Assembly (NCBI RefSeq): GCF_029945965.1
Contig: NZ_JAQSDO010000020.1
Location: forward strand, 124,001-188,000
Source: Thermomonas sp.
Lineage (GTDB): Bacteria > Pseudomonadota > Gammaproteobacteria > Xanthomonadales > Xanthomonadaceae
Length of the DNA stretch: 64,000 bases
Direction: 5' to 3'
Below the pieces are notes generated by a model that saw only the letters and a list, made by a program, of their open reading frames with translations, was not told the DNA's origin and made no database searches. Position numbers and translations under genes: made by a program. Of the stretch, positions 10,968 through 30,376 are shown piece by piece (positions within the stretch are counted from its first letter, which is position 1; each line of letters begins with the position of its first letter).

Positions 10968-11043
10968 GCCGCTTTAGCTCAGCAGGTAGAGCAACCGCCT
11001 TGTAAGCGGTAGGTCATCCGTTCGATTCGGATAAGCGGCACCA
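10968..11043 (+). tRNA. tRNA-Thr (anticodon TGT)
   Basis: A complete 76-nt cloverleaf with encoded CCA. The acceptor stem GCCGCTT pairs with AAGCGGC (11033-11039), discriminator A is at 11040 and CCA at 11041-11043. The anticodon stem ACCGC/GCGGT encloses loop CTTGTAA with anticodon TGT, and TTCGATT forms the T-loop. The last 14 nt (11030-11043) are repeated at 30,363-30,376 and are the integration site of the island. Confidence 0.97.
11030..11043 (+). repeat. attL (14-bp core in tRNA-Thr 3' end)
   Basis: GATAAGCGGCACCA, identical to 30,363-30,376 and in the same orientation. Its place at a tRNA 3' end next to an integrase is typical of tyrosine-recombinase integration. Confidence 0.88.
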
Positions 11044-11147: not shown

Positions 11148-11186
11148 GGGGGCATCAAGGGGCATATTTGGGGGCACAGGGGCACT
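11148..11186 (+). repeat. Cluster of GGGGCAT/GGGGCAC repeats (possible integrase arm sites)
   Basis: Four head-to-tail G-rich units (GGGGGCAT, GGGGCAT, GGGGGCAC, GGGGCAC) lie between attL and the integrase. The 19-mer GGGGCATATTTGGGGGCAC (11,159-11,177) recurs with two mismatches, in the same orientation, at 30,281-30,299 beside attR. Placement at both ends suggests arm-type binding sites for the integrase; this is inference. Confidence 0.5.
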
Positions 11187-11215
11187 TCTGCTCCTTTTCA
11201 GAAGGAGATGCCCCC

Positions 11216-12478
11216 ATGGTGGCGAGCGTTGGCAGTCTGACTGCGGTTGCGATCCGCAACGCCAAGCCAGGTGAGAAGCCCAAGCGTCTGTTCGATGGCG
11301 CCGGCATGTACTTGGAGGTCATGCCGAACGGTTCGCGCTACTGGCGGTTGAAGTACCGCTACGCCGGCAAGGAGAAGCGCCTGGCTCTAGGCGTGTTCCC
11401 GGAAGTGACCTTGGCCGACGCGCGCGGGCTCCGTGACAGTGCCCGTGAAGTGTTGCGCGCGGGACTGGATCCCGGGGCTGAGAAGAAGGCGACCAAGGTG
11501 CGCGCCGTGCTCAATGCGGCCACCACCTTCGAAGCCATTGCCCTTGAGTGGCTGGAGACCCAGCGCGCGAAGCTGGCCGCATCCACCTTCGAGAAGGCTC
11601 AATGGATGTTGGTCGACAACGTGTTCCCGTGGATGGGGGCATTGCCCATCGCCAAGATCGAGGCTCCCGAGGTGCTGGCTACCTTGCGGCGGATCGAGTC
11701 CCGGGGCGCGAACGAGACCGCTCACCGAACCCGGGAACGAATCGCCCAGGTGTTCCGGTATGCCATCGCCACCGGCCGAGCCAAGCACAACCCCGTCGGT
11801 GACCTGCGTGGTGCCCTGTCGCCCGTTGTCCGTACCTCGCGCGCTGCGATCACGGATCCAGCCAAGGTCGGTGACCTGCTGCGCGCGATCGACGGATACA
11901 CCGGCCAATTCGTCACCTGCTGTGCGCTCAGGCTGGCGCCGCTGCTGTTTGTTCGTCCCGGCGAGCTCCGGAAGATGGAATGGGCGGAACTTGACCTAGA
12001 CGCAGCCGAGTGGCGCATCCCGGCCGCCAAGATGAAGATGCGTGAAGAGCACATCGTGCCGCTGGCGCCTCAGGCCGTGGCCATCCTTCGCGACCTGGAA
12101 CCGCTTACCGGTCCCGATCCTCGCCGGCCCACCCGACTCGCCCGCTACGCCTTCCCCAGCCTCCGTAGCGGCACCGAGCCCATGAGCGAGAACACGGTCA
12201 ATGCAGCCCTGCGCCGCTTGGGCTTCGACAAGGTGACGATGACTGGGCACGGTTTCCGCGCGCTGGCCTCGACCAGATTGAACGAGTTGGGATGGGCTCC
12301 GGATGTCATCGAGCGCCAGCTCGCCCATGCAGAGCGCAATTCGGTTCGCGCGGCCTACAACCGAGCCCAGTACATGAAGGAGCGCCGGCAAATGATGGGC
12401 GCCTGGGCGGACTACCTGTACATGCTGAAATCTGACACCAACAAGGTGATTCCGATTCGGCGCAAAGCATCCGGCTAA
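11216..12478 (+). CDS. int: P4-family tyrosine recombinase/integrase
   Basis: 420 residues. The ATG at 11,216 is chosen because GAAGGAG lies 8 nt upstream; an in-frame ATG at 11,168 lacks such a site. The N-terminal arm-binding domain of P4 integrases (about 5-90, LFDGAGMYLEVMPNGSRYWR) is followed by a core-binding domain (about 100-200) and a catalytic domain with Arg247 (RPGELRKMEW), HGFR (His345, Arg348), His371 and Tyr381 (AAYNRAQY). All catalytic residues are present, so the enzyme looks active. It sits directly beside tRNA-Thr and should catalyse integration and excision of the island. Confidence 0.95.
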   Translation: MVASVGSLTAVAIRNAKPGEKPKRLFDGAGMYLEVMPNGSRYWRLKYRYAGKEKRLALGVFPEVTLADARGLRDSAREVLRAGLDPGAEKKATKVRAVLNAATTFEAIALEWLETQRAKLAASTFEKAQWMLVDNVFPWMGALPIAKIEAPEVLATLRRIESRGANETAHRTRERIAQVFRYAIATGRAKHNPVGDLRGALSPVVRTSRAAITDPAKVGDLLRAIDGYTGQFVTCCALRLAPLLFVRPGELRKMEWAELDLDAAEWRIPAAKMKMREEHIVPLAPQAVAILRDLEPLTGPDPRRPTRLARYAFPSLRSGTEPMSENTVNAALRRLGFDKVTMTGHGFRALASTRLNELGWAPDVIERQLAHAERNSVRAAYNRAQYMKERRQMMGAWADYLYMLKSDTNKVIPIRRKASG

Positions 12479-15715: not shown

Positions 15716-15752
15716 GCCTAAAAACAGGGCCGTTACTGCCCCGACCATCGGG
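15630..15752 (+). repeat. Iteron-like array, four copies of CCCCGACYAYCGGG
   Basis: Copies start at 15,630, 15,652, 15,695 and 15,739, so spacings are 22, 43 and 44 bp, near multiples of two helical turns. Each copy is itself nearly palindromic (CCCGA and TCGGG arms). The first three lie inside the 3' end of the upstream gene and the fourth lies beyond its stop. Phased repeats next to a DNA-binding protein gene suggest an origin or an operator. Confidence 0.65.
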
Positions 15753-16492
15753 CACCTTTAAGACTCTACCAAGCGTTGCAGGGGAATCAGGGGCAGCTAG
15801 TGGGTGTGCCAACCCCTGCTGTGAGGCGTCAAAGATCATCGCTGGTTTGCGGCTTGCTTGGCATCGCAGTTCTTGTAGTCCAAGAGCAAAGCGCGCGACT
15901 TAGACACTCGCTGCGAATTTTCTGAAACAGAGGAAATTAGGAATGAGACATCCAACTGCCAATCAAAGCCAGCGCGCGCGACGCAACAGTTTTGCAGCTA
16001 AGCGCGCGCGGGGCTGGTGATCTGTAGCGTGCACAGCAGGCTTGCCGGCGATGGTCGCCTCAAGCTGTGAGGCCTCTATTAGGCTGCAGATCGAGAGATG
16101 TCGAAATTAAGCACCCGCATCCAGCATGTGACATCTGACAAGAGGCTGTCATCTGAAGCTAGGTGTGAGCTACTGGGTGGGTTATATGCGACTCGAGACA
16201 AGCTGGCGCAGCGGACAACCGAGCGTGCCAAGAAGCGGAAATAAGCCTGATTGCAGCTCAACAAAACTTCACAAAACTTCACATTTCGCAACATTTCTGA
16301 GGTGATCCAATTGACTAGCATCGAGGGTTGTTGGCCTGTTGAGAGCACCTCAATGCATCACTCATAGTCAAAAATGGAAATTAACAATTCCGAACAATTC
16401 TGAACATTTTTGGCGCCTTCGACACCGCTCAGACCCACGAGAAGTGCGCTTCAGCCAGTGCTAGGCTTCGTACAAGGGATCGGGAGTGCCTC
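15753..16492. other. Non-coding, AT-richer stretch with short repeats
   Basis: About 740 bp without a convincing gene. It holds tandem ACAAAACTTC copies (16,261-16,280), ACATTTCGCAACATTT (16,281-16,296) and an AACAATTC series (16,383-16,411). A short minus-strand frame at 16,079-16,348 has no recognisable domain or clear start signal. Together with the array at 15,630-15,752 it could be an origin region. Confidence 0.5.
16281..16296 (+). repeat. ACATTTCGCAACATTT repeat, upstream copy
   Basis: This 16-mer is identical to 17,418-17,433. The two copies flank the lipoprotein gene in the same orientation, each preceded by an A/C-rich run. Confidence 0.6.
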
Positions 16493-17359
16493 ATGTTGCG
16501 GATGGTCTTCGTAGTCATTTGCCTTGCATTGCTTACAGCTTGTAGTGAGCGGGCGGTGACGGCACCCGTTGAGGCTGCTGTTCAACCTGCAGCAACGACA
16601 GAGGCGCCACATCACAAGCCAGAGCATCCATCGATCGATATGCCTATTAACAGAACGCCGGAGCCTGTGAGGCAGACGCTTCTAATTGAGGCGATCAACA
16701 AAGTGGCTCGGGAATACAAGGCGGACTGGATGCTGCAGCCCAATGAAGGCAGCTCATACCTGATTCAACAGATCGAGTCGATCCAGGCTCAGGGCAACCC
16801 TGACCTGACCTCCTACGAGCTTGTGAAGCAGGCATTCCAGAACACCCGGGAGGACTTCCTCAACCGTGCCGAGGTCGCTCGGACCAGTGCAGAGATCCTT
16901 TACCGTGGACAGGTCGAGTCGGCGCGCAATCGTGAAATCAGCCGCACGCTGCGCCAGCAAGAGCTCTCGACTCAAAGACAGCAGGCTGCGCAACAAGCGC
17001 TGTACCAAGCAGAATTGCAGGCGCAAGCACAGGCTGAGACGAGTTATGCCAATGCGGCCAGCGCGAGGCAATACGCGCAGCAGCAATATCAGAGCCAGGT
17101 ACAGCAGCCGAGTGCAGCTAACCCCAGCCGATTCGATCCTGACAACGTCGGTTGGGATCCTCGGAAGGGTTACACCTCATTGCGATCTGGATCCAGAAAG
17201 AGATCCAGTAACGATGCAACCGTTCGGACACAGACGGGCCCGCAACGCTTCCAGGATCAATACGGGAACTGGTACGAACAACCACCCGGGTCAGGCTTCG
17301 CCCGGGATGAAAAGACAGGAAAGCAGTGCTTCATCAATGGGGCGTTCGTTCAATGCTAG
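16493..17359 (+). CDS. Putative lipoprotein with coiled-coil, island cargo
   Basis: 288 residues. A signal peptide with lipobox LLTAC (Cys17) predicts an outer- or inner-membrane lipoprotein. A helical, Gln/Ala-rich stretch (about 125-205) is likely coiled-coil. The C-terminal part contains FQDQYGNWYEQPPGSGFARD and ends in a Cys pair region (KQCFINGAFVQC). GGGAG lies 7 nt before the ATG. No family recognised. Direct repeats flank the gene, so it may be a separate cargo unit. Confidence 0.65.
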   Translation: MLRMVFVVICLALLTACSERAVTAPVEAAVQPAATTEAPHHKPEHPSIDMPINRTPEPVRQTLLIEAINKVAREYKADWMLQPNEGSSYLIQQIESIQAQGNPDLTSYELVKQAFQNTREDFLNRAEVARTSAEILYRGQVESARNREISRTLRQQELSTQRQQAAQQALYQAELQAQAQAETSYANAASARQYAQQQYQSQVQQPSAANPSRFDPDNVGWDPRKGYTSLRSGSRKRSSNDATVRTQTGPQRFQDQYGNWYEQPPGSGFARDEKTGKQCFINGAFVQC

Positions 17360-17417
17360 AAGGTGCGAGACCCGTCACCCAAAGCCCATGAAAGCTGGGA
17401 AAAACTAACAAAACACA

Positions 17418-17433
17418 ACATTTCGCAACATTT
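17418..17433 (+). repeat. ACATTTCGCAACATTT repeat, downstream copy
   Basis: Exact copy of 16,281-16,296, followed by TTGG as in the related sequence near 16,410. Confidence 0.6.
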
Positions 17434-17540
17434 TTGGCTGCCCAAAGCCTAACAGTCAGGGTGAGCGGCTAGCGCGATGGGATGGATCCGGTACAACGAA
17501 ACCGTTGGCCTCAGAGATACAATGGGCTCAAGGAGAAGCG

Positions 17541-17739
17541 CATGACATCCTCGATTCCGAGTACCAAGCCGGCAGAGTCAGCGACGCCGAATACAAGGCT
17601 GTCCGTGGCCGAGTGGACGAAGCTGCACCCGCAGACATACCCGGAAATGCCGCCCGAGATGGACTGGCGGGAGAAAGCAAGACTGGACATGGAGTGGGTG
17701 TTGAGCCATCCCGCACTGGACCGCCGGCCTATCTGGTAA
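17541..17739 (+). CDS. Small hypothetical protein
   Basis: 65 residues (MTSSIPSTKPAESATPNT ... WVLSHPALDRRPIW) with AAGGAG about 8 nt before the ATG. The Trp/Pro-rich body (WTKLHPQTYPEMPPEMDW) looks protein-like but is not recognised. An overlapping frame (17,505-17,840) also has a helix-like stretch, so the choice of frame is uncertain. Confidence 0.4.
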
Positions 17740-17822
17740 GTCCCGAAACCCCGCCCACCGGCGAGGTTTGCTGTTCGGTATGGCTGCAAAGGGTGCCTTT
17801 AGCGAGCTCCTGCAATGTGCTG

Positions 17823-19127
17823 CTACTGGACCCGCAATAACTCACTCCACCTTGTCGTGTAAGCCGGCGACAGCGCTTTCAACCTAGGGCGCCACTGCGC
17901 GTCTTTGCCGCCCCTTCGTGGTTCACCTGGCCGCGCGCCGCCCACCCGCCAGCCTGTGGTGCCAACCCCCACGGTGCCGCGCCCGTACTTGGCGTTGATC
18001 TTGTCCATGACGTCCATGCCACGCTCCCGCCGAGAGTCCGGGGCGAAGAACATATCGGCATGACGTTGCTCGCTGCGGACCAAGTCCGTCAGGCCGATGC
18101 CACCACGCTTGAATCGCTGGTCGGGACGCATCATCGACTTGGCCAAGAACCGCACTGCCTGCAGCACTTCGCCGGTGTCCCGCGTCGGGAAAGGCAAGGG
18201 CACCGCGCGCGATACATGGAAGCCGTCACCCTTGTGCGGATTGCCATCGAGCCACACCCAAAGAGCGCCAGCGGCTAGGTCCCTTCCGCGCATCTTTTCG
18301 CAGGCCACGGTTGCGAAGGTGACGAGCGCGTCGAGAGGATCGGCGACATCACGGCCAAACATGCGTGAGACGACGATCTGTTTGCGGTCAGGCTCTTCCA
18401 GCTCCAAGTCGCCACATGGGATGCCACGCAACTCCTGCTGAGTGCGTGCCAGAACCACGCCATAGCGGGCACGAACGCTATCGGTGGGCAGAGACGCAAG
18501 GTCGGCCGCGGTCTGGACGCCTTCCTGGGCCAGGCGCTCCGTGTAGCGTCTTCCGACGCCCCAGACATCCTCGACTGGCAACTGATGGATGTTCTCTGGC
18601 GTCGCGTGGAATACGGCGAGGCGTCCAGCTTTGGCCGCGCGCTTGGATTGAGTCTTCGCCAACTTGTTGCCGGCCTTGGCCAGCGTGCGAGTCGCGCCAA
18701 GTCCCACGCAGCAGGGAATGCCGACCCACTGCAATATCCGCTCGCGCGCTTCCAGACAGATGGCTACGGGATCCTTCATTCCCTCGACATCGACGAAGTT
18801 CTCATCAATCGAGTAGACCTCCACCCTGGGGAACAGGTCCCGCAAAATACTGACGATCCTCGCCGACAAGTCGCCGTAGAGGGCGAAGTTGGCTGAGCGT
18901 ACTTGGACCTGTTTGCGGATGGCGTCGGGCACTTGGAAAATTGGAGTGCCAATCTTCAATCCGAGAGCTTTGGCTTCGGGTGATAGAGCAATGCAGCAGC
19001 CGTCGCCGTTTCCCAGCACGACGGTGGGCTTACCGTGCAGTCTGGGATCGAACATGCGCTCACAGGACACGTAGAACGTGTTGCCGTCGATCAAACCGAA
19101 ACGAGGCGGCTCCTGCACGATGCTCAT
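17823..19127 (-). CDS. umuC: Y-family DNA polymerase V subunit UmuC
   Basis: 434 residues. The palm motifs [19 protein letters not shown] (metal-binding Asp, about 10-28) and [10 protein letters not shown] (second catalytic acidic pair), helix-hairpin-helix [15 protein letters not shown] and the little-finger domain are all present. The C-terminal extension ([18 protein letters not shown], with a DUF4113-like end) is typical of UmuC. It performs error-prone bypass of damaged DNA with UmuD'. Its start overlaps the umuD stop by 4 nt. Confidence 0.95.
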
Positions 19128-19594
19128 AGGTGGAAGTGAACGTTGCTCCGGACCACTCCCCAGACATCCAGCTCGATGTCCTCGGGAACAATGATCGGTG
19201 GGAACCCGGCACTGGATGCCAGCACGATGCGGTTGCCCCGCACGTACAGCTTCTTGCACACGAACCCGCCCTCCCACAACACCACGACGGTATGGCCAGG
19301 GCGTGGATTGATCGAGCGATCGACGATCAGCAGGTCGCCGTCCTGGATGCCATAGTCGACCATTGAACCGCCACAGTCGGCCTGCACTAGGAAGGTGGCC
19401 GCCGGGTTTTTGATGAGTTTCTCGTTGAGGTCGAGCCGATCGTCTTCGCGAAAGAAGTCCTCCGCGGGCGATGGGAAGCCGCACGCGGCCTGCATGGCCA
19501 GCACGGGCAACGAGCGTTGAGTGAACGTCGACACCGGTCCCAACAGGGTTGGTGGGGGAGGTAGTGGGCGGCTGGAAACGGGGATGACATGCAT
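19124..19594 (-). CDS. umuD: UmuD-type S24 autopeptidase, SOS polymerase subunit
   Basis: 156 residues. The Cys38-Gly39 cleavage site ([12 protein letters not shown]), catalytic Ser77 ([10 protein letters not shown]) and Lys114 (FVCKKL) have the same Ser-Lys spacing as E. coli UmuD. RecA-stimulated self-cleavage should give UmuD', the partner of UmuC. The N-terminal region before the cleavage site is Pro-rich and somewhat longer than in E. coli. AGGA precedes the ATG by about 8 nt. The pair is transcribed leftward, away from the methyltransferase gene. Confidence 0.93.
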
Positions 19595-19675
19595 GACGAG
19601 CGATCCTGATAGGCGCGCGACTCACACACTGAGACACGGGGTGAAGAGGCTACGCTTGGCTCAGTCGCCTCGCTA

Positions 19676-19691
19676 TTAGTAATTCCCTGAA
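19676..19691 (-). promoter_or_regulatory. Candidate degenerate LexA box upstream of umuDC
   Basis: Read on the minus strand, TTCAGGGAATTACTAA keeps the TACTAA half of the xanthomonad-type LexA site (about TTAG-N6-TACTAA) but only TT of the other half. It lies about 80 bp before umuD. The overlapping CCCTGAACAGGG (19,685-19,696) is an alternative symmetric site. Low certainty. Confidence 0.3.
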
Positions 19692-19814
19692 CAGGGACGC
19701 AGGCAAGGTTCCACGCGCCGATGGCTTTTTGTTCCACAGCAGGCCCGTGTGACAATCGGATGCCAACTTGACTGATCCATTCGGGTCGCGACATGAGCCG
19801 GAAGCCGCCCTTGC

Positions 19815-22556
19815 ATGAATGCTGTAGAGATTGAACAGGCACTGTCCGACCTAGCCGAACTGGAGTTCGCTGGAGCGGAGTTCCCATTCCAGTTCCTCGC
19901 CGCCTTCGGCAACAAAGCCACGACCATCGCGCGGCTACGCAAGGGCGACAGCAACACCTCCGACCTGCCGGGTGGCGTGCTGCAGCGCAACCACATCCAC
20001 ATCGTTGTGGCCGAACCCGGCAAGGTCAGCCAAACGCTCACCGCCCTGAAGGCAAGTCCGAAGACCGCCCAGGCCAAAGCCAAGTTCATCCTGGCCACGG
20101 ATGGGACGACGCTGGAAGCGGAAGAACTGGCCACGGGCGATGCCATCGCGTGCGACTACCCGCAGTTCCCCGACCACTTCGGCTTTTTCCTGCCGCTGGC
20201 CGGCATCTCCACTATCAAGGAGATCAAGGACAACCCCATCGATGTCCGGGCCACTGGTCGCCTGAACAAGTTGTACATCGAGTTGCTGCGTGAGAACCCG
20301 GTGTGGTCCAAGGTCGAACGCCGTCCGGACATGAACCACTTCATGGCCCGCCTGGTGTTCTGCTTCTTCGCCGAGGACACCGACATCTTCCCTGGCACCA
20401 GCCTGTTCACCACCACCGTGGACCAGATGAGCGAGCGAGACGGCTCCAACGTCCACGAGGTGTTGGGAACCATCTTCCGCGCCATGAACACCAAGGCGGA
20501 AGATCGGGCAGCAGCCGGGATTCCACGCTGGGCGACCGAGTTCCCCTACGTCAACGGCGGACTGTTCTCCGGCAGCACCTCAGTGCCGAAGTTCATCCGC
20601 ACAGCCAGGTCCTACCTGTACCAGGCAGGACAGCTCAACTGGAGGGAAATCAATCCCGACATCTTCGGGTCGATGATCCAGGCAGTGGCTGACGATGAAG
20701 AGCGCGGCGAGTTGGGCATGCACTACACCAGCGTGCCGAATATCTTGAAGGTGCTGAACCCGTTGTTCCTGGATGACCTGCGTGTGCAATTGGAAGCAGC
20801 GGGCGACAACAAGATTAAACTGTTGAACCTGCGCAAGCGGATGGCACACATCCGCGTGTTTGATCCGGCGTGCGGCTCAGGCAACTTCCTCGTCATCGCC
20901 TACAAGCAGATGCGGGAGATCGAATCCCAGATCAATCGCCTTCGATGCGAGGCCAACCTTGCATCCGAAATTCCGATCAACAACTTTCGGGGGATCGAGC
21001 TGCGCGATTTCCCCGCAGAAATTGCGCGCTTGGCGTTGATAATTGCGGAGTTCCAGTGCGATGTGCTGTATCGCGGCCAGCGAGAAGCCCTCAACGACGT
21101 ATTGCCGCTGGACAGCGAGAACTGGATCACGTGTGGTAACGCCCTGCGTCTGGACTGGTTGGCGATATGTCCGCCAACAGGAACGGGTGTGAAGCTAGTA
21201 GGCGATGACTTGTTCAACACGCCACTGGACCAGTCTGAAATCGACTTCGAGAACGAGGGTGGAGAAACCTATATCTGTGGAAATCCGCCATATCTAGGAG
21301 CAAAGAAGAAAAGCAAACAACAATCAGATGACATGTCGGCTGTTGGTCTTGGCGATTGTCAGCTACTCGATTATGTGGCCGCATTTATTGTCAAAGGGCT
21401 TGACGTAATACATGCGACGAACACATCAATGGCATTTGTATCGACCAGTTCCATAAGTCAAGGCGAGCAGGTTTCACTACTGTGGCCTCGGATCTTTGCT
21501 AAGGCGGCAATATCCTTCGCTTATCGACCATTCAAGTGGTCAAACTCTGCCTCAAAAAATGCAGGTGTTTTCTGCACAATAATTGGCTTAGTTACAAACG
21601 AAAGCAAGAGCAAAAGACTATTTGATGGAGAAGTGGTAACGCAGTGCGAGAGTATTTCTCCCTATCTTATTCCAGGGCCAAAAATTTACTGCGAACCAAG
21701 TGATGCCCCGATTTCGCCTCTTTCGCAGATGAAGATGGGCAGCAATAGTGTGGACGGGAAGAGACTGGTTCTTGAATCTCAAACGGCAGAAGACATTGTC
21801 TCAAAGTACCCTAAGGCGTCCCAGTTCATTCGGATGTATGGAGGAACGAAAGAGTTGGTCTCTGGAGTGCCACGGCGCTGCCTCTGGATCAGTAATGAAG
21901 ACGTTGATTTGGCCAAAAGTATTCCGCCAATTAGAAAGGCCATCGATGACTGCCATGCCTATCGACTTGGCGCGGGGCGGGACGCACGCAAGGCAGCGAC
22001 TCGCCCGCATGCTTTTTGCTACTCGACTTATGAAGAGCGAGACTTCATCCAAGTTGGAAACACCATTGGCAGTGCTCTTGCATACGTTCCGGCGGATATC
22101 AAGCGCTATGGATACGTATCAAATCACAATGCATTTGTTGTGTACGGTGCGCCGCTACTCGAGTTCGCGATAGTCGTTTCATCCACACACAAAATTTGGG
22201 CTGAAACGATCGCTGGTCGGCTTGGTGATGGCATTCGGTACGGGAATACCGTCGTATACAACACATTTCCCATTCCACCATTGACCGACCAGAACAAGGC
22301 CGACTTGACTGCTTGCGCCCAGGAAATCCTACTCGCCAGAGAAACCCATTTTCCGGCCACCATTGCCGATCTCTACGATCCAGAAACCATGCCGTCCGAT
22401 CTACGGCGAGCGCACGAGAAGAACGATGAAGTGCTGGAACGCATCTACATCGGCCGTAAGTTCAAGAACGACACCGAGCGGCTAGAAAAGCTGTTCGATC
22501 TCTACACCAAGATGACGGCGGGCCAAGCCAAGCCGAAAAAGGGGAAGGCGAAATGA
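19815..22556 (+). CDS. Large class I DNA methyltransferase (MmeI-like organisation)
   Basis: 913 residues. A long N-terminal helical region (about 1-330) precedes the SAM-binding motif FDPACGSGNF (about 349-358) and catalytic motif IV GNPPYLG (about 489-495), which indicates N6-adenine or N4-cytosine methylation. A target-recognition segment (about 500-820) and a C-terminal helical domain follow. The order resembles MmeI-type (type IIL) enzymes. I cannot see a clear N-terminal PD-(D/E)XK nuclease, so cleavage may come from partners. DNA at 21,260-22,280 is much AT-richer than the rest of the gene. Stop and next start overlap (ATGA, 22,553-22,556). Confidence 0.85.
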   Translation: MNAVEIEQALSDLAELEFAGAEFPFQFLAAFGNKATTIARLRKGDSNTSDLPGGVLQRNHIHIVVAEPGKVSQTLTALKASPKTAQAKAKFILATDGTTLEAEELATGDAIACDYPQFPDHFGFFLPLAGISTIKEIKDNPIDVRATGRLNKLYIELLRENPVWSKVERRPDMNHFMARLVFCFFAEDTDIFPGTSLFTTTVDQMSERDGSNVHEVLGTIFRAMNTKAEDRAAAGIPRWATEFPYVNGGLFSGSTSVPKFIRTARSYLYQAGQLNWREINPDIFGSMIQAVADDEERGELGMHYTSVPNILKVLNPLFLDDLRVQLEAAGDNKIKLLNLRKRMAHIRVFDPACGSGNFLVIAYKQMREIESQINRLRCEANLASEIPINNFRGIELRDFPAEIARLALIIAEFQCDVLYRGQREALNDVLPLDSENWITCGNALRLDWLAICPPTGTGVKLVGDDLFNTPLDQSEIDFENEGGETYICGNPPYLGAKKKSKQQSDDMSAVGLGDCQLLDYVAAFIVKGLDVIHATNTSMAFVSTSSISQGEQVSLLWPRIFAKAAISFAYRPFKWSNSASKNAGVFCTIIGLVTNESKSKRLFDGEVVTQCESISPYLIPGPKIYCEPSDAPISPLSQMKMGSNSVDGKRLVLESQTAEDIVSKYPKASQFIRMYGGTKELVSGVPRRCLWISNEDVDLAKSIPPIRKAIDDCHAYRLGAGRDARKAATRPHAFCYSTYEERDFIQVGNTIGSALAYVPADIKRYGYVSNHNAFVVYGAPLLEFAIVVSSTHKIWAETIAGRLGDGIRYGNTVVYNTFPIPPLTDQNKADLTACAQEILLARETHFPATIADLYDPETMPSDLRRAHEKNDEVLERIYIGRKFKNDTERLEKLFDLYTKMTAGQAKPKKGKAK

Positions 22557-24646
22557 CATCGGATGGCAAGCCGACCGACACGAAGGTAGTTCCATCGGTC
22601 TCTATTGCGACGGCGCGCACAGGCGCCTCGAGCAAGGTCAATGCCCTGGGCATGCGACCCATGCAAGAGCGCGCCTATGCCAAGCGGGGCGAGCAATACC
22701 TGCTAATCAAGTCGCCGCCCGCCTCTGGCAAGTCGCGCGCCTTGATGTTCATTGCGCTGGACAAGCTGCAGAACCAAGGCTTGAAGCAAGCCATTATCGT
22801 GGTGCCTGAGAAATCAATCGGGAGCAGCTTCGCCGACGAAGAATTGACCAAGCACGGATTCTGGGCGGACTGGAAGGTTCAGCCGCAATGGAACCTGTGC
22901 AATGCACCGGGCGATGATGAGGTCAAAGTCGACAAGAGCAAAGTGCGGGCCGTTGGTCGCTTCCTGGAAGGTGAAGACAAGGTCTTGGTCTGCACGCACG
23001 CCACGTTCCGCTTCGCAGTCGAGGAATACGGCATCGCAGCATTCAATGATCGCTTGATTGCAGTCGATGAGTTCCACCATGTCAGCAGCAATCCGGACAA
23101 CGTGCTGGGCAGCCAGCTCACGCAACTGATCGCTGCCGGCAAGACCCACCTTGTGGCCATGACCGGCTCCTACTTTCGTGGCGATGCTGCCGCTGTTCTG
23201 GCGCCACACGACGAAAACCGCTTTGAGACGGTGACGTACACCTACTACGAGCAGTTGAACGGCTACACCTACCTGAAATCGCTGGAAATTGGCTACTTCT
23301 TCTACACAGGCCGCTATCTGGATGCGATCACCAAGGTCCTGGACCCGGCACTAAAAACCATCGTCCACATCCCGAACGTCAACTCGCGTGAGAGCCTGCA
23401 GGACAAGTACAAGGAAGTCGAAGAGGTCATGGAGGCACTGGGCACCTGGAAAGGTGTCGATGCCGCCACAGGTTTCCACCTGATTGAGCGTGCCGATGGC
23501 TCCCTCCTGAAGGTGGCTGATCTGGTGGACGACAGCGACGCGACCAAACGCGCCAAAGTGCTGAACTCCCTCAAAGATCCGGCGCAGAAACACAACCGCG
23601 ACCACGTGGACATCATCATCGCGCTCGGTATGGCCAAAGAAGGGTTCGATTGGATCTGGTGCGAACACGCACTGACCATCGGCTACCGCAGCAGCCTGAC
23701 CGAAATCGTACAGATCATTGGCCGGGCCACCCGCGATGCACCGGGCAAAGAGCGTTCGAGGTTTACGAATCTGATAGCGGAGCCGGCTGCAGGAGAAGCG
23801 GAAGTCGTGGCCGCCGTAAACGACACGTTGAAGGCGATTGCTGCAAGCCTGTTGATGGAACAAGTATTGGCGCCGCGCTTCGAGTTCACACCAAAGAACC
23901 AAGGCAAGTTGGACGGGTTTGAGTACGAGGGCGGCTACAACGAAGGCGGCACCAATCTCGGTGTCAACGCGGCAACCGGACAGGTCCATGTCGAGATTGG
24001 CGGGTTGGCCATGCCGGATACGCAGGAAGCCAAGCGGATCTGCAAGGAAGACCTCAACGAGGTCATCACCGCATTCGTCCAGGACAAGACCGCGCTGGAG
24101 CAAGGCCTGTTCAACGATCACACCCTGCCGGAGGAGCTGACCCAGGTCCAGATGGGCAAGATCGTGCGAGATCGCTATCCGGAGTTGAGCGAATCCGACC
24201 AAGAAGCTATCCGCCAACACGCCGTCGCTGCCCTCAACATCACCCAGCAGGCCAAGCAGGCCTTGGCGGTCGCTGAGGAAAAAGGCGAGTACAGCAATAC
24301 TTCACTCATCGACGGCGTGCGCAAATTCATCAATGTCCGCGATCTGGACATCGACCTGATCGACCGGATTAATCCGTTCGATGCGGCCTACTCGGTTCTG
24401 GCAAAAGCGATGGACGAGAAGGTGTTGCGCCAAGTGCAGGCCAGTATTTCGGCCAAGCGGGTGAATATTTCGAAAGAAGATGCGCGTGAACTTGCGAAGC
24501 GCGCACTTGAGTTCAAGACGGAAAAGGGCCGCTTGCCAGATATCAACTCGGCGGATGCTTGGGAGAAGCGAATGGCTGAAGGCGTGGCAGCATTGGCCAA
24601 GTACCGTGCCGACGAAAAGGCCAAAGAGGCCAGCGTCAATGGCTGA
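22553..24646 (+). CDS. SF2 DEAD/DEAH-type helicase of the methyltransferase operon
   Basis: 697 residues. Walker A SPPASGKSRA (Lys60), Walker B AVDEFHH (Asp172-Glu173), motif III-like MTGSYF and motif VI QIIGRATRDAPGK (about 387-399) define an ATP-dependent SF2 translocase related to restriction-type helicases. The C-terminal 300 residues are helical and not recognised. It overlaps both neighbours (4 nt upstream, 8 nt downstream), so its product is made in step with the methyltransferase and GIY-YIG protein. It could supply DNA translocation for a restriction-like complex. Confidence 0.88.
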   Translation: MTSDGKPTDTKVVPSVSIATARTGASSKVNALGMRPMQERAYAKRGEQYLLIKSPPASGKSRALMFIALDKLQNQGLKQAIIVVPEKSIGSSFADEELTKHGFWADWKVQPQWNLCNAPGDDEVKVDKSKVRAVGRFLEGEDKVLVCTHATFRFAVEEYGIAAFNDRLIAVDEFHHVSSNPDNVLGSQLTQLIAAGKTHLVAMTGSYFRGDAAAVLAPHDENRFETVTYTYYEQLNGYTYLKSLEIGYFFYTGRYLDAITKVLDPALKTIVHIPNVNSRESLQDKYKEVEEVMEALGTWKGVDAATGFHLIERADGSLLKVADLVDDSDATKRAKVLNSLKDPAQKHNRDHVDIIIALGMAKEGFDWIWCEHALTIGYRSSLTEIVQIIGRATRDAPGKERSRFTNLIAEPAAGEAEVVAAVNDTLKAIAASLLMEQVLAPRFEFTPKNQGKLDGFEYEGGYNEGGTNLGVNAATGQVHVEIGGLAMPDTQEAKRICKEDLNEVITAFVQDKTALEQGLFNDHTLPEELTQVQMGKIVRDRYPELSESDQEAIRQHAVAALNITQQAKQALAVAEEKGEYSNTSLIDGVRKFINVRDLDIDLIDRINPFDAAYSVLAKAMDEKVLRQVQASISAKRVNISKEDARELAKRALEFKTEKGRLPDINSADAWEKRMAEGVAALAKYRADEKAKEASVNG

Positions 24647-25829
24647 CACAGATGACGACGATCTGCTGGCAGCACTGGGGGTCGAAGCTGCACCCAGCAA
24701 GGCCAGCAGTCACACGGCGCTGCAGGAGCGGCTGATTGCCGGCTTCGAGGACATCCTGCGTTTCGTGGACGCCAATGGGCGGGCACCGCAACACGGTGAA
24801 GACCTCGATATCTTCGAGCGGCTTTATGCCGTTCGCTTGGATCGATTGAAAGGAATGCCTGAAGCGCGAGAGTTGTTGGCCAGCATGGACATGGCAGGAT
24901 TGCTCAACGGAGCGATTCCTGCTTCGACTATCCGGGTGGACGAGCTAGACGACGAGGCTCTGCTGGCTGAGTTGGGAGCCGAAGCACCCGCCGGCGAAGA
25001 TGACATTACCCAATTGCGCCACGTCGCGACCTATGCAGACCGCAAGGCCGCCGAGGAAATTGCGAACCGCGCGCGGTGCCTGGACTTCGATACGTTCCAG
25101 CCGAAGTTCGAGGGTGTGGAGAATGATCTCAGTTCCGGACTGCGCAAGACTTTGCGATTCGGACGTGACGCCAGTGTGCTTCAAGGCAACTTCTTCATCC
25201 TTGGCGGTCAGATGGCTTACGTCGCCGAGGTGGGCGAAACCATCCGGGCGCCGAATGGAGAAGCGGACGCCCGCATGCGAGTTGTCTACTCCAACGGGAC
25301 GGAGAGCAACCTCCTGCAGCGATCGTTGCAACGGGCGCTCTATAAGGACGTGACGGGCCGGCGCATCACCGATGTCAGCAATGGTCCGCTGTTCGGCGAC
25401 ACCATGGAGCCAGACGACATCGAAAGCGGGACCATCTACGTCCTGCAAAGCCAGTCAGACCATCCCTACGTGGCGGAACATCGCGAGTTGATCCACAAGA
25501 TCGGCGTCACAGGCATGAAGGTGGAAACCCGGATTGCTGGTGCGAAAGACGACGCAACGTACCTGCTCGCGGGTGTGACTATCGTGGCCACCTACAAGCT
25601 CGCGCACATCAACCGAACCAAGCTGGAAAATTTGTTCCACAAGATTTTCGCTCCCGCGCAACTCGACCTAACAATCGAGGATCGGTTCGGAAAACCTGTA
25701 AAGCCGCGAGAGTGGTTCTTGGTCCCGCTGCAAGTCATTGACGAGGCTGTAGAGCGCATGCGTGATGGTTCAGTTACGAAGTACGTCTACGATCCGAAAT
25801 CTGCGCGGCTGGTGCCGGCCAAGGCATGA
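24639..25829 (+). CDS. GIY-YIG-like (MUG113/T5orf172-type) nuclease protein
   Basis: 396 residues from ATG 24,639, which overlaps the helicase by 8 nt. The N-terminal half is acidic and helical. The C-terminal half carries TIYVLQSQSDHPYV and KIGVTG (about 265-292), then ALKLAH-like and ENLFH segments, matching the GIY-YIG variant in MUG113/T5orf172 proteins, where Y-V and K-I-G replace GIY and YIG. The final residues (REWFLVPLQVIDEAVERM) fit the end of that domain. It is the likely DNA-cleaving part of the three-gene operon; cleavage is inferred, not shown. Confidence 0.8.
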   Translation: MADTDDDDLLAALGVEAAPSKASSHTALQERLIAGFEDILRFVDANGRAPQHGEDLDIFERLYAVRLDRLKGMPEARELLASMDMAGLLNGAIPASTIRVDELDDEALLAELGAEAPAGEDDITQLRHVATYADRKAAEEIANRARCLDFDTFQPKFEGVENDLSSGLRKTLRFGRDASVLQGNFFILGGQMAYVAEVGETIRAPNGEADARMRVVYSNGTESNLLQRSLQRALYKDVTGRRITDVSNGPLFGDTMEPDDIESGTIYVLQSQSDHPYVAEHRELIHKIGVTGMKVETRIAGAKDDATYLLAGVTIVATYKLAHINRTKLENLFHKIFAPAQLDLTIEDRFGKPVKPREWFLVPLQVIDEAVERMRDGSVTKYVYDPKSARLVPAKA

Positions 25830-26331
25830 CCTGAGTGCTACTCCGCTGAATGTTGGACGTCCTACGACGGCTAGATAAAAACGTTAGACGCCGACATTGC
25901 AATGAGATCGGATCATGCTCGCCGTCATCCGCCTGGTAACACCATGAAGGTGGCCGGGGGATTGAAGCCCTACTCAGCGCACGCGAACACGAACTCGGAT
26001 GTTTCTGCCTCTCCTGCTATTTGCAGGCTAAGCCTTCACCCGCGATTAGTTGCTGTCAGACACACCCCTCGCGTAGTTGTCGAGCTAAAACTAGTGAATG
26101 GCATGTGAGAAATTAATTGGCGTGGCGACACATGCGGTTCGGCCAACGGATGTCCTGTTTAATGATGTAGTGGCGTGAAAGAACGAGAGCCCAGTAATCC
26201 CTCGATCTGCTGCATCTCATGAGGTAAGAGCGCACCGGCACAGATGGTTTAGTTTCTTAACTCTGGTACGCATGCCCAGCCGCAGGATCACTGGCGTGCG
26301 ACGATCGGGGTCTACAACGCAGGGGAATGGC
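25830..26331. other. Intergenic stretch without a recognised gene
   Basis: About 500 bp between the GIY-YIG gene and the beta-family gene. No tRNA, terminator or clear reading frame with a ribosome site is seen. A frame at 25,902-26,108 is short and has no domain. Confidence 0.5.
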
Positions 26332-27369
26332 ATGGCAGGTCCGAAGTACTACCCGATATTAAAGTGGAAAAAGGGAGAGCAAGACGCAGTTCGTTACCTG
26401 GATACCGCTGACCAAGCTGTGATGCTGCCTGTCTTAGAGGTTCTAGCTAAGCCAGGTGCAGACTTGCGGTCCGCGTTAGGAGCCCAGCTCGAGCGCGCAC
26501 ATGGCGATTTCTTTCCATTCGGCATCGATGGCCGAAATGTCTGGCAGGCAGGATCGGTTTTCAATCCACTTCTCAGGCTGTGTGCCGGCCTGCAGAAGGA
26601 CGGCTACCTTGCCTATCCGGTCATTAATGTGCCTGATCTGTTCGCTAACTTGGGGAACTTGGCCGCACTAAAGGAATTTTCGATCGTCATCCTGCGGCTG
26701 CGCTTGCAATTGCTCACGCTAGTCCAAGCAGTGAAGGTGATCAAAGACGTACGCAAGGCAGTTGGTCGCAAGGTTCAGGTTCACGTAATTTATGACTTTG
26801 GGCCGATTGGCGATGCCCCCGAGCCGTGGTTGCGCGGATTCGTCGAGCCGTTCGTCAGGGACACCTTGGCCGGAGGGGACGCAAGCTTTGTCTCCATGGC
26901 TGGTGGTTCGTTCCCATTGACCCTTACAGGTATTCCCGTCGGTGCCCAAAACAAATTGCGGCGCAAGGAGTGGCACGTCTGGCAGGACTTGCGATTACAG
27001 CTTGGCTGCGCCGACGTGCGATTTGGGGACTTCACCGTAACCAATCCCGAGCCACTGGAGATAGCGGATCCGGCGGCCATGAACCCTTCCGCCGCCATCC
27101 GCTACGCACTAGATGGTGAGTGGTGGCTTTTGAGGGGCAAAGGGGTCAAAACGGCGGGGGCTGGAGGGTTTGGCCAATACAACACGCTATGTAAGCTGCT
27201 GGTCGCCAGTCCTCAATATGCAGGGGCGCCTTTCAGCTATGGCGATGGGCGTTACAGTTTTCACGCGCAGCCAAGTCAAACCAAGACTGGCAATCTCACG
27301 ACATGGCGGCGAGACGCCGCAAATCATCATCTCGTTCAGACGGCGCGGCGATTGAATGTGCTGATTTGA
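26332..27369 (+). CDS. Beta family protein (T4 beta-like / sce7725-like)
   Basis: 345 residues from ATG 26,332, preceded by AGGGGA. It starts with the family hallmark GPKYYPILKWKKGEQDAVRYL, followed by LPVLEV, alternating helix and strand (VHVIYDFGPIG, FVSMAGGSFPLTL) as in a TIM-like barrel, and ends TTWRRDAANHHLVQTARRLN. Beta-family proteins often occur next to sce7726-type nuclease genes in mobile regions; their biochemical function is unknown. Its 3' end overlaps the 3' end of the convergent sce7726-like gene by 74 bp. Confidence 0.85.
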   Translation: MAGPKYYPILKWKKGEQDAVRYLDTADQAVMLPVLEVLAKPGADLRSALGAQLERAHGDFFPFGIDGRNVWQAGSVFNPLLRLCAGLQKDGYLAYPVINVPDLFANLGNLAALKEFSIVILRLRLQLLTLVQAVKVIKDVRKAVGRKVQVHVIYDFGPIGDAPEPWLRGFVEPFVRDTLAGGDASFVSMAGGSFPLTLTGIPVGAQNKLRRKEWHVWQDLRLQLGCADVRFGDFTVTNPEPLEIADPAAMNPSAAIRYALDGEWWLLRGKGVKTAGAGGFGQYNTLCKLLVASPQYAGAPFSYGDGRYSFHAQPSQTKTGNLTTWRRDAANHHLVQTARRLNVLI

Positions 27370-27964
27370 AGCGAAGAAGGTCGCGCTCACGCAGGGATGT
27401 GCGGGAACGCAGTACCTCGATTACCCATTTCTTGAGCGTCGCCAGTTCGGTGAGGTCGGCCAACTGGCGGTAGAGTTTGGCCCGATTTGCCGAGCTGGCC
27501 ACCTTGGCGCCGAGATTGTCCCGAAGAATGACAGCGGCCTCGTCGCGCCAAAGGAGGGCGGCGATGCTTTCAAGCTCCTGCCGCGGATTGAAGTCGGGAG
27601 GGCGCACTTGTGTCAGGCTCACTTCACCGGAGTCTGTGCGCTCGGCCTGGAGGATGCCCCACCAAGGTGCCAGCAGGAGCGACACCTGAGGAACGAACGC
27701 TGCGGTAGTAACGATGGTCAACTCATCGAACACGCGATGGTAGGCGTGCATCTGATGAGCTAGGCGATCGAGCGTATCGAAATCGCTTTTAATCTCGAAC
27801 CCACACAGCGAGCTACCAAGCTGAGCGACGTCCACACGGGCCGTGCCGTTCTCGATTCCCATCTCCTCCACTAGGAGATCACCCGCGGCGAGCCGAGGCG
27901 TAAACCATGTGGCGAGAGCTTGGCGAAGCTCCTGCTCGGTGACGCGGTGGCGGACGAAACTCAT
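27296..27964 (-). CDS. sce7726-family protein, PD-(D/E)XK nuclease-like
   Basis: 222 residues. After a helical start, ENGTARVDVAQLGSSLCGFE followed by IKSDFDTL holds Asp45 and Glu57-x-Lys59, a PD-(D/E)XK-type active-site layout, with QMHAYHRVFDELTIVTT behind it. The ATG is 38 bp from the divergent XRE gene and has no Shine-Dalgarno; CATAAT lies 7 nt before the ATG, which suggests a leaderless mRNA. It is probably a nuclease effector acting with the beta protein, but this is inferred from gene association. Confidence 0.8.
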   Translation of the reverse strand: MSFVRHRVTEQELRQALATWFTPRLAAGDLLVEEMGIENGTARVDVAQLGSSLCGFEIKSDFDTLDRLAHQMHAYHRVFDELTIVTTAAFVPQVSLLLAPWWGILQAERTDSGEVSLTQVRPPDFNPRQELESIAALLWRDEAAVILRDNLGAKVASSANRAKLYRQLADLTELATLKKWVIEVLRSRTSLRERDLLRFKSAHSIAAPSERDDDLRRLAAMS

Positions 27965-27971
27965 GCTGGCG

Positions 27972-28008
27972 ATTATGCCACGCTTTATGCCATAATGCCA
28001 TTATGCCG
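27972..28008. promoter_or_regulatory. Palindromic operator with divergent leaderless promoters
   Basis: TTATGCCATAA and CATAATGCCATTATG are overlapping near-perfect palindromes, and TTATGCC occurs three times. CATAAT -10-like boxes face both ways: at 27,991-27,996 toward the XRE gene (6 nt before ATG) and on the minus strand at 27,972-27,977 toward the sce7726 gene (7 nt before ATG). The layout suggests that the XRE protein binds here and controls both genes. Confidence 0.6.
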
Positions 28009-28389
28009 AGAGGAAAACAGCCCATAGATCCCCGAATATTGGACGCGATTCCGCGCATCAAAGCCCATATGTTGGCGCATGGGCACACTCAGCCTGACGT
28101 AGAAAGGTTGACTGGGCAGCCGCAAAGCCAGATAAGCCGCTTGTTGGCCGGCAAGCGGACTCGTGTGACCGACCCGGTGCGTGAGATATGCAAATATGCA
28201 AATATAGACCTTGAAGCGGTATTGCCCATATCTGCTCACGAGCGACGCCTTTCTTACGCCGTTGGACAAGTCATAATGGACAACCCGTGCGGCGCGGCGG
28301 TCTTGGCCAGAGTCATCGAGGCCTTGGCACCCACTCTGGCGCTACTACGCGACCCGCCGGCGATGCGTGCCGATAAGGAGCACCCATGA
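28003..28389 (+). CDS. XRE-family transcriptional regulator
   Basis: 128 residues. The HTH_3 domain (about 18-70) has HTQPDVERLTGQPQSQISRL and LAGKRTRVTDPVREICKYAN, followed by a helical tail. The start codon lies inside the TTATGCC repeat without a Shine-Dalgarno, fitting a leaderless transcript as in restriction-modification controller genes. It overlaps the ImmA-like gene (ATGA, 28,386-28,389). It probably represses its own promoter and the divergent nuclease gene. Confidence 0.88.
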   Translation: MPRGKQPIDPRILDAIPRIKAHMLAHGHTQPDVERLTGQPQSQISRLLAGKRTRVTDPVREICKYANIDLEAVLPISAHERRLSYAVGQVIMDNPCGAAVLARVIEALAPTLALLRDPPAMRADKEHP

Positions 28390-29411
28390 ACGTTCTCCCA
28401 TACCGTGATCTGATGGCGACGATGCGTGGGATCGGCCTAAACAAAAGGCAGGTCGGAGCCCTGTTGCCCGAATGGTGGGAAGACACGACGGCCTCAACGA
28501 CGGCCGGCGCGTGGGAGTTCGTGCTAATGATGAGCCGGCGCCTCGGATTGGATGCAGTGCTCCTGGCTCAGGGTCAGGTTCATTCCTTGGGCGAGGTTTC
28601 CGAGCCGCGATTCAAGCACACCGCCCGAGTGACCGCAGAAGACCTTCAAGCGGCCAGCCGTATTGCAGGCGCCTTGGCCAAGGCGGTGGTGGCTGCCATG
28701 CCGAACCCGACGCCTGTGCCGCTGCTGTCAGCCCAGGAGGTGCGCGACAAGATTCTCGCCAATCGCAACGGCCGGGTCGACTTCGACAGCCTCCTCGACT
28801 TTGCCTGGGAATGCGGGATCCCCGTGATTCCTCTCCCCAACCTTCCGCCTGGCGTCAAGAAAATGGACGCGGTGGCGATGAAGGTTGAGTCGCGGCCCGC
28901 GATCGTGATTGCACGCAAGAACGACTCCAAGGCCTGGCTAAGCTTCATATTGGCCCACGAGTTGGGACATATCCTGCTCGGCCACGTACCGGACAACGGC
29001 TCGATAGTGGAGGGGTCTATCAAAGATACGTCCGACTTCGAAGCCGAATCTCAACTCGACCAGCAAGAGCGCGAAGCCAATGCTTTTGCGCACAGCGTTT
29101 TGGGTGGGCGCGATCTCGAGCAGGTCGTGAGCAGTTGGGGTACCCGGGCGACGATGATGGAGCTCGTGGACAAGGCACTGGAGGGCGGGCCGCGGCTAAG
29201 AACAGCGCCGGGCCACCTAATTCTGCGTTACGCCTTCACTTCACGGCGATGGGCGGATGCCAATCTGGCCTTGCGGTTCTTGGCCGATGACGTGGATGCC
29301 CAGGCGACTCTGGTGGATCGGTTGGCTAAACAAATTGACACCGGAGCAATTGCCGGCGATCTACAGGAGTTTGTCGAACAGATCACTGGGGTGGCTGCTC
29401 GAGCGGCCTGA
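28386..29411 (+). CDS. ImmA/IrrE-family metallopeptidase
   Basis: 341 residues. The first 75 residues are HTH-like or helical. The peptidase domain carries ILAHELGHILLGH (His191, Glu192, His195) and the downstream QEREANAFA glutamate (about 230), a complete zincin site. ImmA-like proteases cut XRE repressors to induce mobile elements, as with ImmR in ICEBs1. The XRE gene immediately upstream is the natural substrate candidate. The stop and the next start share one base (TGATG). Confidence 0.9.
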   Translation: MNVLPYRDLMATMRGIGLNKRQVGALLPEWWEDTTASTTAGAWEFVLMMSRRLGLDAVLLAQGQVHSLGEVSEPRFKHTARVTAEDLQAASRIAGALAKAVVAAMPNPTPVPLLSAQEVRDKILANRNGRVDFDSLLDFAWECGIPVIPLPNLPPGVKKMDAVAMKVESRPAIVIARKNDSKAWLSFILAHELGHILLGHVPDNGSIVEGSIKDTSDFEAESQLDQQEREANAFAHSVLGGRDLEQVVSSWGTRATMMELVDKALEGGPRLRTAPGHLILRYAFTSRRWADANLALRFLADDVDAQATLVDRLAKQIDTGAIAGDLQEFVEQITGVAARAA

Positions 29412-30043: not shown

Positions 30044-30280
30044 CTGGCGTGACCTAGACTTTACGTCGCATTCACGACGATTCCGCTCTAGGCTAGGGAT
30101 TACTGCTTGAAACTACTGACCGCAACGTCGACTCTTGCGGTAAGTGACGGCTCAACTTGTAGGTCGCAATGACCGAAGAAAGTAAGAAGCCACTGACTCT
30201 TTGAGCGGGCACTACCTCGCGATACACTTCGACCAAGGTAGTTGTCGTCCGTCATTGAGGCACCCAGCGAAGCCGCGCCG

Positions 30281-30299
30281 GGGGCATAAATGGGGGCAC
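30281..30299 (+). repeat. Right-end copy of the G-rich 19-mer
   Basis: GGGGCATAAATGGGGGCAC differs at two positions from 11,159-11,177 and has the same orientation. Candidate integrase arm site about 65 bp from attR. Confidence 0.5.
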
Positions 30300-30362
30300 T
30301 AACGCTAATATCCGCTTGCCAGTGCCAGGTAAAACAGCCGCTTAGGCTGACTATTCGGTGCT

Positions 30363-30376
30363 GATAAGCGGCACCA
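30363..30376 (+). repeat. attR (14-bp core repeat)
   Basis: GATAAGCGGCACCA, identical to the end of tRNA-Thr at 11,030-11,043. It marks the right border of the island. Confidence 0.88.

What the first reader, a model, noticed from the sequence alone, without database searches (positions are those of the whole stretch)
19815..25829. Three-gene coupled operon: DNA methyltransferase, SF2 helicase, GIY-YIG protein
The genes overlap (ATGA, then 8 nt), so they should be made in fixed ratio. Methyltransferase plus translocase plus a GIY-YIG-type nuclease is the parts list of a restriction-like defence system, yet it lacks the hsdR/hsdM/hsdS layout and the extra genes of BREX, DISARM or Dnd systems. 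It sits in a defence-rich island. I know of no named system with this composition, so it is the best candidate here for an undescribed anti-phage system. Functions of single proteins rest on motifs; the joint role is inference.
Basis: partly seen in the sequence, partly recalled or inferred. Interest (0 to 1): 0.82.

Follow-up and report, generated by a model that had tools for sequence, protein, structure and literature searches.

The report
Three-gene split restriction-modification system
These three overlapping genes look like a complete bacterial DNA-defence system (a DNA-marking enzyme plus a separate motor and DNA cutter) of a kind already described in other bacteria, so it is a good new example rather than an unknown system.

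Summary
Three intact + strand genes overlap by 4 nt (ATGA) and 8 nt: an MmeI-family adenine methyltransferase with its own target-recognition domain, an SF2 helicase, and a T5orf172 (GIY-YIG) protein. 'Undescribed' does not hold: PMC4752239 (Blow 2016) describes this composition as OspHL35III ("several hundred members in REBASE"), and two papers describe Bacillus subtilis dnmA-yeeB-yeeC. PADLOC-DB v2.0.0 recognises only the methyltransferase ("Type IIG"). In my own sample, MmeI-family methyltransferases beside yeeB/yeeC lack the cis nuclease motif D-X9-ExK (0 of 28); those with no yeeB/yeeC in view keep it (27 of 29; 22 of 22 where at least 3 kb downstream is visible). Catalytic residues of full-length helicases (111 of 111) and nucleases (107 of 107) are invariant, window included. 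Best reading: a split, Type I-like restriction-modification system with the nuclease in trans, on a 19-kb tRNA-Thr island. Activity was not tested. Two side results: YeeB's C-terminus and YeeC's N-terminus share a helix-loop-helix module, and 54 of 109 loci carry at least 300 nt, usually extra genes, between methyltransferase and helicase.

The parts
19815..22556 (+). MmeI-family adenine methyltransferase with target-recognition domain (DnmA-like, 913 aa); cis nuclease motif absent
   Evidence: Pfam MmeI_N, MmeI_hel, MmeI_Mtase, MmeI_TRD, MmeI_C; PADLOC REase_MTase_IIG PDLC03598 E 5.8e-257; motifs I and IV present, no D-X9-ExK
21675..22283 (+). target-recognition domain (residues 621-823)
   Evidence: PF20466 183.7 bits
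22553..24646 (+). SF2 helicase/translocase (YeeB-like, 697 aa); Walker A, DEFH, motif III and motif VI present
   Evidence: PF00270 29.5 bits, PF04851 24.9 bits, both over cut-off; motifs invariant in 111 of 111 full-length proteins
24639..25829 (+). GIY-YIG (T5orf172) nuclease subunit (YeeC-like, 396 aa)
   Evidence: PF10544 and PF13455 over cut-off; catalytic-type residues invariant in 107 of 107 full-length proteins
25428..25763 (+). GIY-YIG domain (YeeC residues 264-375)
   Evidence: PF10544 match 264-375; predicted pLDDT mostly over 90 here
22553..22556 (+). 4-nt ATGA overlap methyltransferase/helicase
24639..24646 (+). 8-nt overlap helicase/nuclease (ATGGCTGA)
24473..24622 (+). helix-loop-helix module at the C-terminus of YeeB (residues 641-690), shared with YeeC
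   Evidence: hhalign 93.4% against YeeC N-terminus; 200 column shuffles at most 4.6%
24717..24854 (+). helix-loop-helix module at the N-terminus of YeeC (residues 27-72)
   Evidence: helices 27-46 and 58-72 in the model
11021..11043 (+). left attachment-like repeat, 3' end of tRNA-Thr (island start)
   Evidence: direct repeat D4; tRNA-Thr 10968-11043
30354..30376 (+). right attachment-like repeat (island end); 14 nt exact (GATAAGCGGCACCA), 87% over 23 nt
11168..12478 (+). tyrosine integrase of the island
   Evidence: PF00589, PF22022, PF13356

Best explanation
A split restriction-modification system of the OspHL35III / DnmA-YeeB-YeeC kind. The methyltransferase reads an asymmetric site through its own TRD and marks one adenine (N6) on one strand. 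It lacks the nuclease motif that MmeI-type lone enzymes carry in cis. An unmethylated site is instead handed to a YeeB-YeeC unit: YeeB is the ATP-driven translocase and YeeC the GIY-YIG cutter, possibly held together through the helix-loop-helix module that both carry. Cutting probably follows translocation, as in Type I, Type ISP and Type III enzymes, perhaps only when two unmethylated sites face each other, because one-strand marking alone cannot tell newly copied host DNA from invader DNA. Shown here: the parts, intact catalytic residues, conserved order, and the partition between nuclease motif in cis and yeeB/yeeC in trans. Inferred: base and site methylated, complex formation, translocation, cleavage, and the need for paired sites. 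The confidence given is for the kind of system; for cleavage after translocation I would say about 0.6.
For: All five MmeI domains, SF2 helicase and T5orf172 hits. Trio order in every YeeB locus examined whose contig is long enough: 109 of 111 with methyltransferase, 107 of 111 with YeeC, all six misses at contig ends. Cis nuclease motif 0 of 28 with yeeB/yeeC against 27 of 29 without them in view, 22 of 22 with at least 3 kb visible downstream. Invariant residues in full-length proteins: YeeC G264, Y267, K287, G289, R298, E330 in 107 of 107; YeeB GKS, DEFH, QIIGR and TRD in 111 of 111; methyltransferase motif I nearly invariant in 119. Published, passages only: the OspHL35III description; DnmA makes m6A at GACGAG, and the B. 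subtilis trio was proposed as Type I-like; Vibrio crassostreae deletions of dnmA and yeeB raise sensitivity to some phages, as reported by PMC9973331.
Against: No activity is shown here. In B. subtilis, deletions gave no phage or transformation phenotype and phages do not avoid the site. The full-length sets were chosen by score and length, which favours intact proteins. Two loci lack both the motif and yeeB/yeeC (L167, L184) but their contigs end 655 and 216 nt downstream, so they decide nothing. The YeeC model found no solved structure at E 0.001 or better, so the GIY-YIG call rests on sequence. On the tree the partition needs only 2 label changes, so the 28 and 27 cases are not independent. 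YeeB relatives also lie on IMG/VR contigs (23 loci), so carriage is not confined to chromosomes and plasmids.
Confidence: 0.85

Rival explanations
1. Orphan methyltransferase plus restriction relic: only the methyltransferase works, as an epigenetic regulator, and YeeB/YeeC are leftovers (the view taken for B. subtilis).
For: B. subtilis deletions of yeeB or yeeC changed neither plaquing nor growth, and phages do not avoid the site; transformation unchanged. Short YeeC pieces, two of them with a stop inside, exist in genomes G131, G232 and G249, and some methyltransferases of trios are frameshifted (L050, L158, L164, L166).
Against: Catalytic residues of helicase and nuclease are invariant in 111 and 107 full-length proteins, window included, though these sets were chosen for length and score. 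All three window genes are intact. Vibrio deletions change phage sensitivity, as reported in PMC9973331.
Confidence: 0.09
2. BREX-like exclusion: methylation marks self, but YeeB/YeeC stop phage replication without cutting at or near sites.
For: Same logic of asymmetric one-strand m6A; the methyltransferase has partial similarity to PglX and DrmMI models.
Against: A conserved nuclease-type active site in YeeC; none of the other window proteins scanned (five in 26272-30043, five in 12570-17356) hit a BREX or DISARM model.
Confidence: 0.06

Closest known systems
OspHL35III-type Type IIG-like systems (Blow 2016, PMC4752239, S4 Fig. C legend; passages read)
   Same: MmeI-like methyltransferase/specificity protein without the N-terminal endonuclease motif, separate translocase, separate GIY-YIG endonuclease
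   Different: Nothing in composition that I can see. Its sequence was not at hand, so identity to the window proteins was not measured.
dnmA-yeeB-yeeC of Bacillus subtilis (PMC7261158, PMC9973331; passages read)
   Same: Same three families in the same order, the pattern reported as conserved and defence-associated
   Different: B. subtilis YeeB/YeeC are reported to lack stretches in their C-terminal domains and show no restriction; the window's catalytic residues are present
Type IIL MmeI (PDB 5hr4)
   Same: Methyltransferase and TRD align over most of the protein (E 4.9e-125)
   Different: The 22 MmeI-type lone enzymes with enough downstream sequence keep D-X9-ExK in the N-terminal domain; the window protein does not
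Type I and Type ISP restriction enzymes (PMC3874165, passages read)
   Same: Methyltransferase with recognition plus ATP-driven translocase plus nuclease
   Different: Separate GIY-YIG nuclease instead of a PD-(D/E)XK domain fused to the motor; TRD fused to the methyltransferase, no S subunit

Membership tests
OspHL35III / DnmA-YeeB-YeeC type | MmeI-like methyltransferase/TRD protein lacking the cis PD-ExK motif | tested here: met
OspHL35III / DnmA-YeeB-YeeC type | separate translocase gene with intact ATPase motifs | tested here: met
OspHL35III / DnmA-YeeB-YeeC type | separate GIY-YIG nuclease gene with intact motif | tested here: met
   by sequence; not confirmed by fold search
OspHL35III / DnmA-YeeB-YeeC type | gene order methyltransferase, helicase, GIY-YIG (as reported for B. 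subtilis) | tested here: met
   window; relatives:
OspHL35III / DnmA-YeeB-YeeC type | direct sequence homology to the named OspHL35III or B. subtilis proteins | not tested
   sequences not at hand; B. subtilis rings as a control for MmeI_Mtase at E 1e-60
OspHL35III / DnmA-YeeB-YeeC type | single-strand m6A at an asymmetric site and restriction activity | not testable with these tools
   needs methylome sequencing and plating
Type IIL (MmeI) single-chain enzyme | PD-ExK nuclease in the same chain | tested here: not met
   window has no D-X9-ExK
Type I restriction-modification | separate HsdS and HsdR with fused PD-(D/E)XK | tested here: not met
   no such proteins among those scanned; TRD is inside the methyltransferase
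BREX | PglX over cut-off plus PglZ, BrxC, BrxL or similar | tested here: not met
   best PglX model 26.8 bits against cut-off 500; no BREX genes among the neighbouring proteins scanned
DISARM | DrmA helicase, DrmB (DUF1998), DrmC | tested here: not met
   only partial DrmMI similarity in the methyltransferase; none of the DrmA, DrmB or DrmC models among the hits of the proteins scanned (the list for the methyltransferase shows 25 of 44)
Dnd/Pbe | dnd restriction helicase over cut-off, Dnd genes | tested here: not met
   dnd_restrict_1 15.5 bits against cut-off 600; PbeA E 7.3e-6, partial

The most novel reading that the evidence does not exclude
The YeeB-YeeC pair is a self-contained restriction unit joined by a duplicated helix-loop-helix docking module, and the gap between methyltransferase and YeeB is a recurrent insertion slot for further defence or guard genes (YhcG, RhuM, PDDEXK, Schlafen AlbA, GmrSD_N). 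The locus would then be a platform: one recognition unit with exchangeable backup effectors that act when the main nuclease is blocked.
Probability: 0.25. Interest if true: 0.55.

Novelty: new member of a known kind. Interest (0 to 1): 0.3.

Why it matters
The swap of nuclease in cis for translocase plus nuclease in trans, the intact motifs here against a B. subtilis copy reported inactive, and the shared YeeB/YeeC module make it a tractable case for how a one-strand-marking enzyme could control an ATP-driven cutter.

Tried and rejected
Undescribed system: rejected on PMC4752239. Homing-type nuclease unrelated to the methyltransferase: disfavoured because every one of 107 YeeB loci with downstream sequence has YeeC after YeeB (106 within 100 nt); YeeC had no match in 50,697 phage records at E 1e-5. 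Against a purely bacterial distribution: 23 YeeB loci and 18 methyltransferase loci lie on IMG/VR contigs; I did not check whether those contigs are true phages. YeeB as 'pseudomurein-binding' (annotation on two listed plasmids): PF09373 is below its cut-off (22.8 against 24.9) and falls on residues 637-663, the start of the C-terminal helix-loop-helix. Structure route: the YeeC model is good per domain (pLDDT 85.9, pTM 0.49) but Foldseek gave nothing at E 0.001 or better; of 455 weak matches the 50 shown are led by eIF5A/EF-P-like chains (E 7.4e-3) and none is named GIY-YIG. The YeeB model is poor (pLDDT 67.3) and was used only for helix positions. Promoter scan found no sigma-70-like site in 19500-26300 (0 found, 3.1 expected in shuffles); not informative. 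Slot enrichment: largest ORF of 42 slots against largest ORF within 2.5 kb downstream of YeeC in the same 42 loci (42 of 54 loci with a slot; 9 skipped and 3 without a complete trio in view). PDC-S02 (YhcG) models hit 8 of 42 in the slot and 1 of 42 downstream, but other defence models hit members of both sets and totals are not printed (25 of 142 and 25 of 97 families shown), so no enrichment is claimed. One search read the wrong alignment columns and one search was off by one for E and K; one search has the right columns. Morgan 2009, Makarova 2011 and a DOI tried for the Vibrio phage study were not held; for these I rely on the papers that cite them.
Full report
Check of the observation. 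The three genes are real, intact and on one strand. The junctions are ATGA at 22553-22556 and ATGGCTGA at 24639-24646. Protein 1 matches all five MmeI domains of Pfam, protein 2 matches DEAD and ResIII above cut-off, and protein 3 matches T5orf172 and MUG113 above cut-off. That T5orf172 belongs to the GIY-YIG superfamily is recalled; PMC9973331 and PMC4752239 also call such proteins GIY-YIG.

Is the trio more than chance? YeeC matches 20 of 299 genomes drawn from the same phylum, own genome included; three of the 20 are short pieces. Among the 20 strong MmeI_Mtase places in the same 299 genomes (E 1e-80 or better), 14 have YeeB and YeeC downstream in the same order and 6 show neither, though for two of these 6 (L046, L048) the contig ends within 262 nt. 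A fifteenth trio (L050) has a frameshifted methyltransferase. Over those 80 and 31 further YeeB loci found through the methyltransferase, 109 of 111 have methyltransferase sequence upstream and 107 of 111 have YeeC downstream; all six misses are contigs that end within 561 nt. The 31 were found by their methyltransferase, so only the 80 test that partner fairly (78 of 80). The 80 include Tumebacillus, Cohnella and Fictibacillus (L109, L117, L146; Bacillota by recall). YeeB matches 264 plasmid records, 152 over at least 80% of its length, 118 of the 264 typed conjugative. YeeC had no match in the phage records, but YeeB and the methyltransferase have 23 and 18 loci in IMG/VR contigs.

Nuclease in cis or in trans. 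Methyltransferases came from three overlapping draws of 299, 398 and 369 genomes. From the first draw I used places at E 1e-80 or better plus the frameshifted one; from the other two every place at E 1e-60 or better; weaker matches were not used. Of 65 rows, 8 lack the region and were set aside (7 trio, 1 solo). Of the rest, 0 of 28 next to yeeB/yeeC hold D-X9-ExK, and 27 of 29 with no yeeB/yeeC in view do. Seven of those 29 have under 1.1 kb of contig downstream, so their partners cannot be seen: five with the motif and both exceptions (L167, L184, both from genome G618). With at least 3 kb visible the count is 22 of 22, and with at least 8 kb 19 of 19. Fisher's test on all rows gives 3e-14, but the tree of 54 rows needs only two label changes: 26 rows without yeeB/yeeC form one clade (100/100) and L167 falls among the trio rows. 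So this is one old partition rather than many independent events. The same was said of such enzymes by Morgan 2009 as quoted in PMC7261158 and in PMC4752239.

Is the window copy likely to work? In proteins kept as full length (by score and length, which drops partial and decayed ones), YeeC G264, Y267, K287, G289, R298 and E330 are invariant in 107 of 107 and H334 in 106 of 107; YeeB Walker A GKS, DEFH, MTGS and the QIIGR and TRD of motif VI in 111 of 111; methyltransferase motif I is nearly invariant in 119. The window is one of these rows, so all three active sites look intact. This contrasts with B. subtilis, where PMC9973331 reports missing C-terminal stretches and no phage phenotype.

A module shared by helicase and nuclease. 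The YeeB C-terminus and the YeeC N-terminus align by profile at 91-93% probability; five other pairings of segments gave under 2%. Against 200 column-shuffled controls the best was 4.6%; of 26 windows along YeeB only the two overlapping C-terminal ones hit (93.9 and 93.5%), and none of 35 along the methyltransferase passed 3.9%. Models place a helix-loop-helix at both spots. A docking role is inference. I did not see this described in the passages I read, and did not search for it by name.

Insertion slot. Methyltransferase and YeeB ORFs are 60 nt or less apart in 53 of 109 loci, 193 and 275 nt apart in two, and at least 300 nt apart in 54; YeeB and YeeC are separated by 100 nt or more in only 1 of 107. 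The ATGA overlap of the window occurs in 27 of 109. Of nine slot proteins picked from the larger clusters and scanned, five hit YhcG, Schlafen AlbA_2, RhuM, PDDEXK_4 or GmrSD_N above cut-off, one hit PLDc_2 below cut-off, and three had no Pfam hit.

Setting. The operon lies in a stretch of lower G+C (0.55-0.61 in 12-30 kb, against 0.61-0.67 elsewhere in the window), between tRNA-Thr with an integrase and a repeat of the tRNA 3' end at 30354-30376. Neighbours include beta and cll homologues of the gop-beta-cll set, an HTH plus IrrE-type pair, and a UmuD/UmuC-like pair.

What was known. From passages only: the PMC4752239 S4 Fig. [quoted passage not shown] PMC9973331 reports the conserved dnmA-yeeB-yeeC order, cites defence-island work, and a Vibrio study in which dnmA and yeeB deletion raised sensitivity to some phages. 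PMC7261158 reports m6A at GACGAG by DnmA and a proposed Type I-like system. The one-strand problem and possible head-to-head pairing for MmeI enzymes are argued in PMC3874165. PADLOC-DB v2.0.0 recognises only the methyltransferase, as Type IIG.

Verdict. A new, apparently intact member of a known but little-studied kind. The class assignment is strong; the mechanism in motion is inference.

Noticed in passing
window 11021-30376: A 19.3-kb island: tRNA-Thr, tyrosine integrase, and a copy of the tRNA 3' end (14 nt exact, GATAAGCGGCACCA) at the far side.
   Followed up: partly
window 26272-27964: Homologues of beta (PF14350; PADLOC PD-Lambda-2_C) and cll (PADLOC cll; sce7726 family), tail to tail with overlap; no gop was named among the hits of the proteins scanned.
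   Followed up: no
window 28003-30043: HTH gene, IrrE/M78 peptidase gene (weak RmrA/capP similarity) and a third unnamed gene in a row, toxin-antitoxin-like.
   Followed up: no
window 17823-19594 (-): UmuC-like polymerase and UmuD-like S24 peptidase directly upstream, divergent from the operon.
   Followed up: no
window 16253-17436 and 15627-15753: Two families of short direct repeats (37 nt and 18 nt units) of unknown role inside the island.
   Followed up: no
L007:8613-12095 (same genome, contig C15): A second MmeI-like gene, 1161 aa, matching a different PADLOC Type IIG model (1459 bits).
   Followed up: no
loci L032-L165, between methyltransferase and YeeB: At least 300 nt, usually with extra genes, between methyltransferase and helicase in 54 of 109 loci; YhcG-type nucleases are the largest family seen (8 of 42 scanned).
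   Followed up: partly
plasmid records NZ_CP022422.1 and NZ_CP139705.1: YeeB relatives annotated as pseudomurein-binding repeat proteins, probably a false name caused by the C-terminal helix-loop-helix.
   Followed up: partly
IMG/VR contigs, e.g. L008, L009, L051: YeeB and methyltransferase relatives lie on contigs of a viral collection (23 and 18 loci); whether these are prophages or misassigned host DNA was not checked.
   Followed up: no
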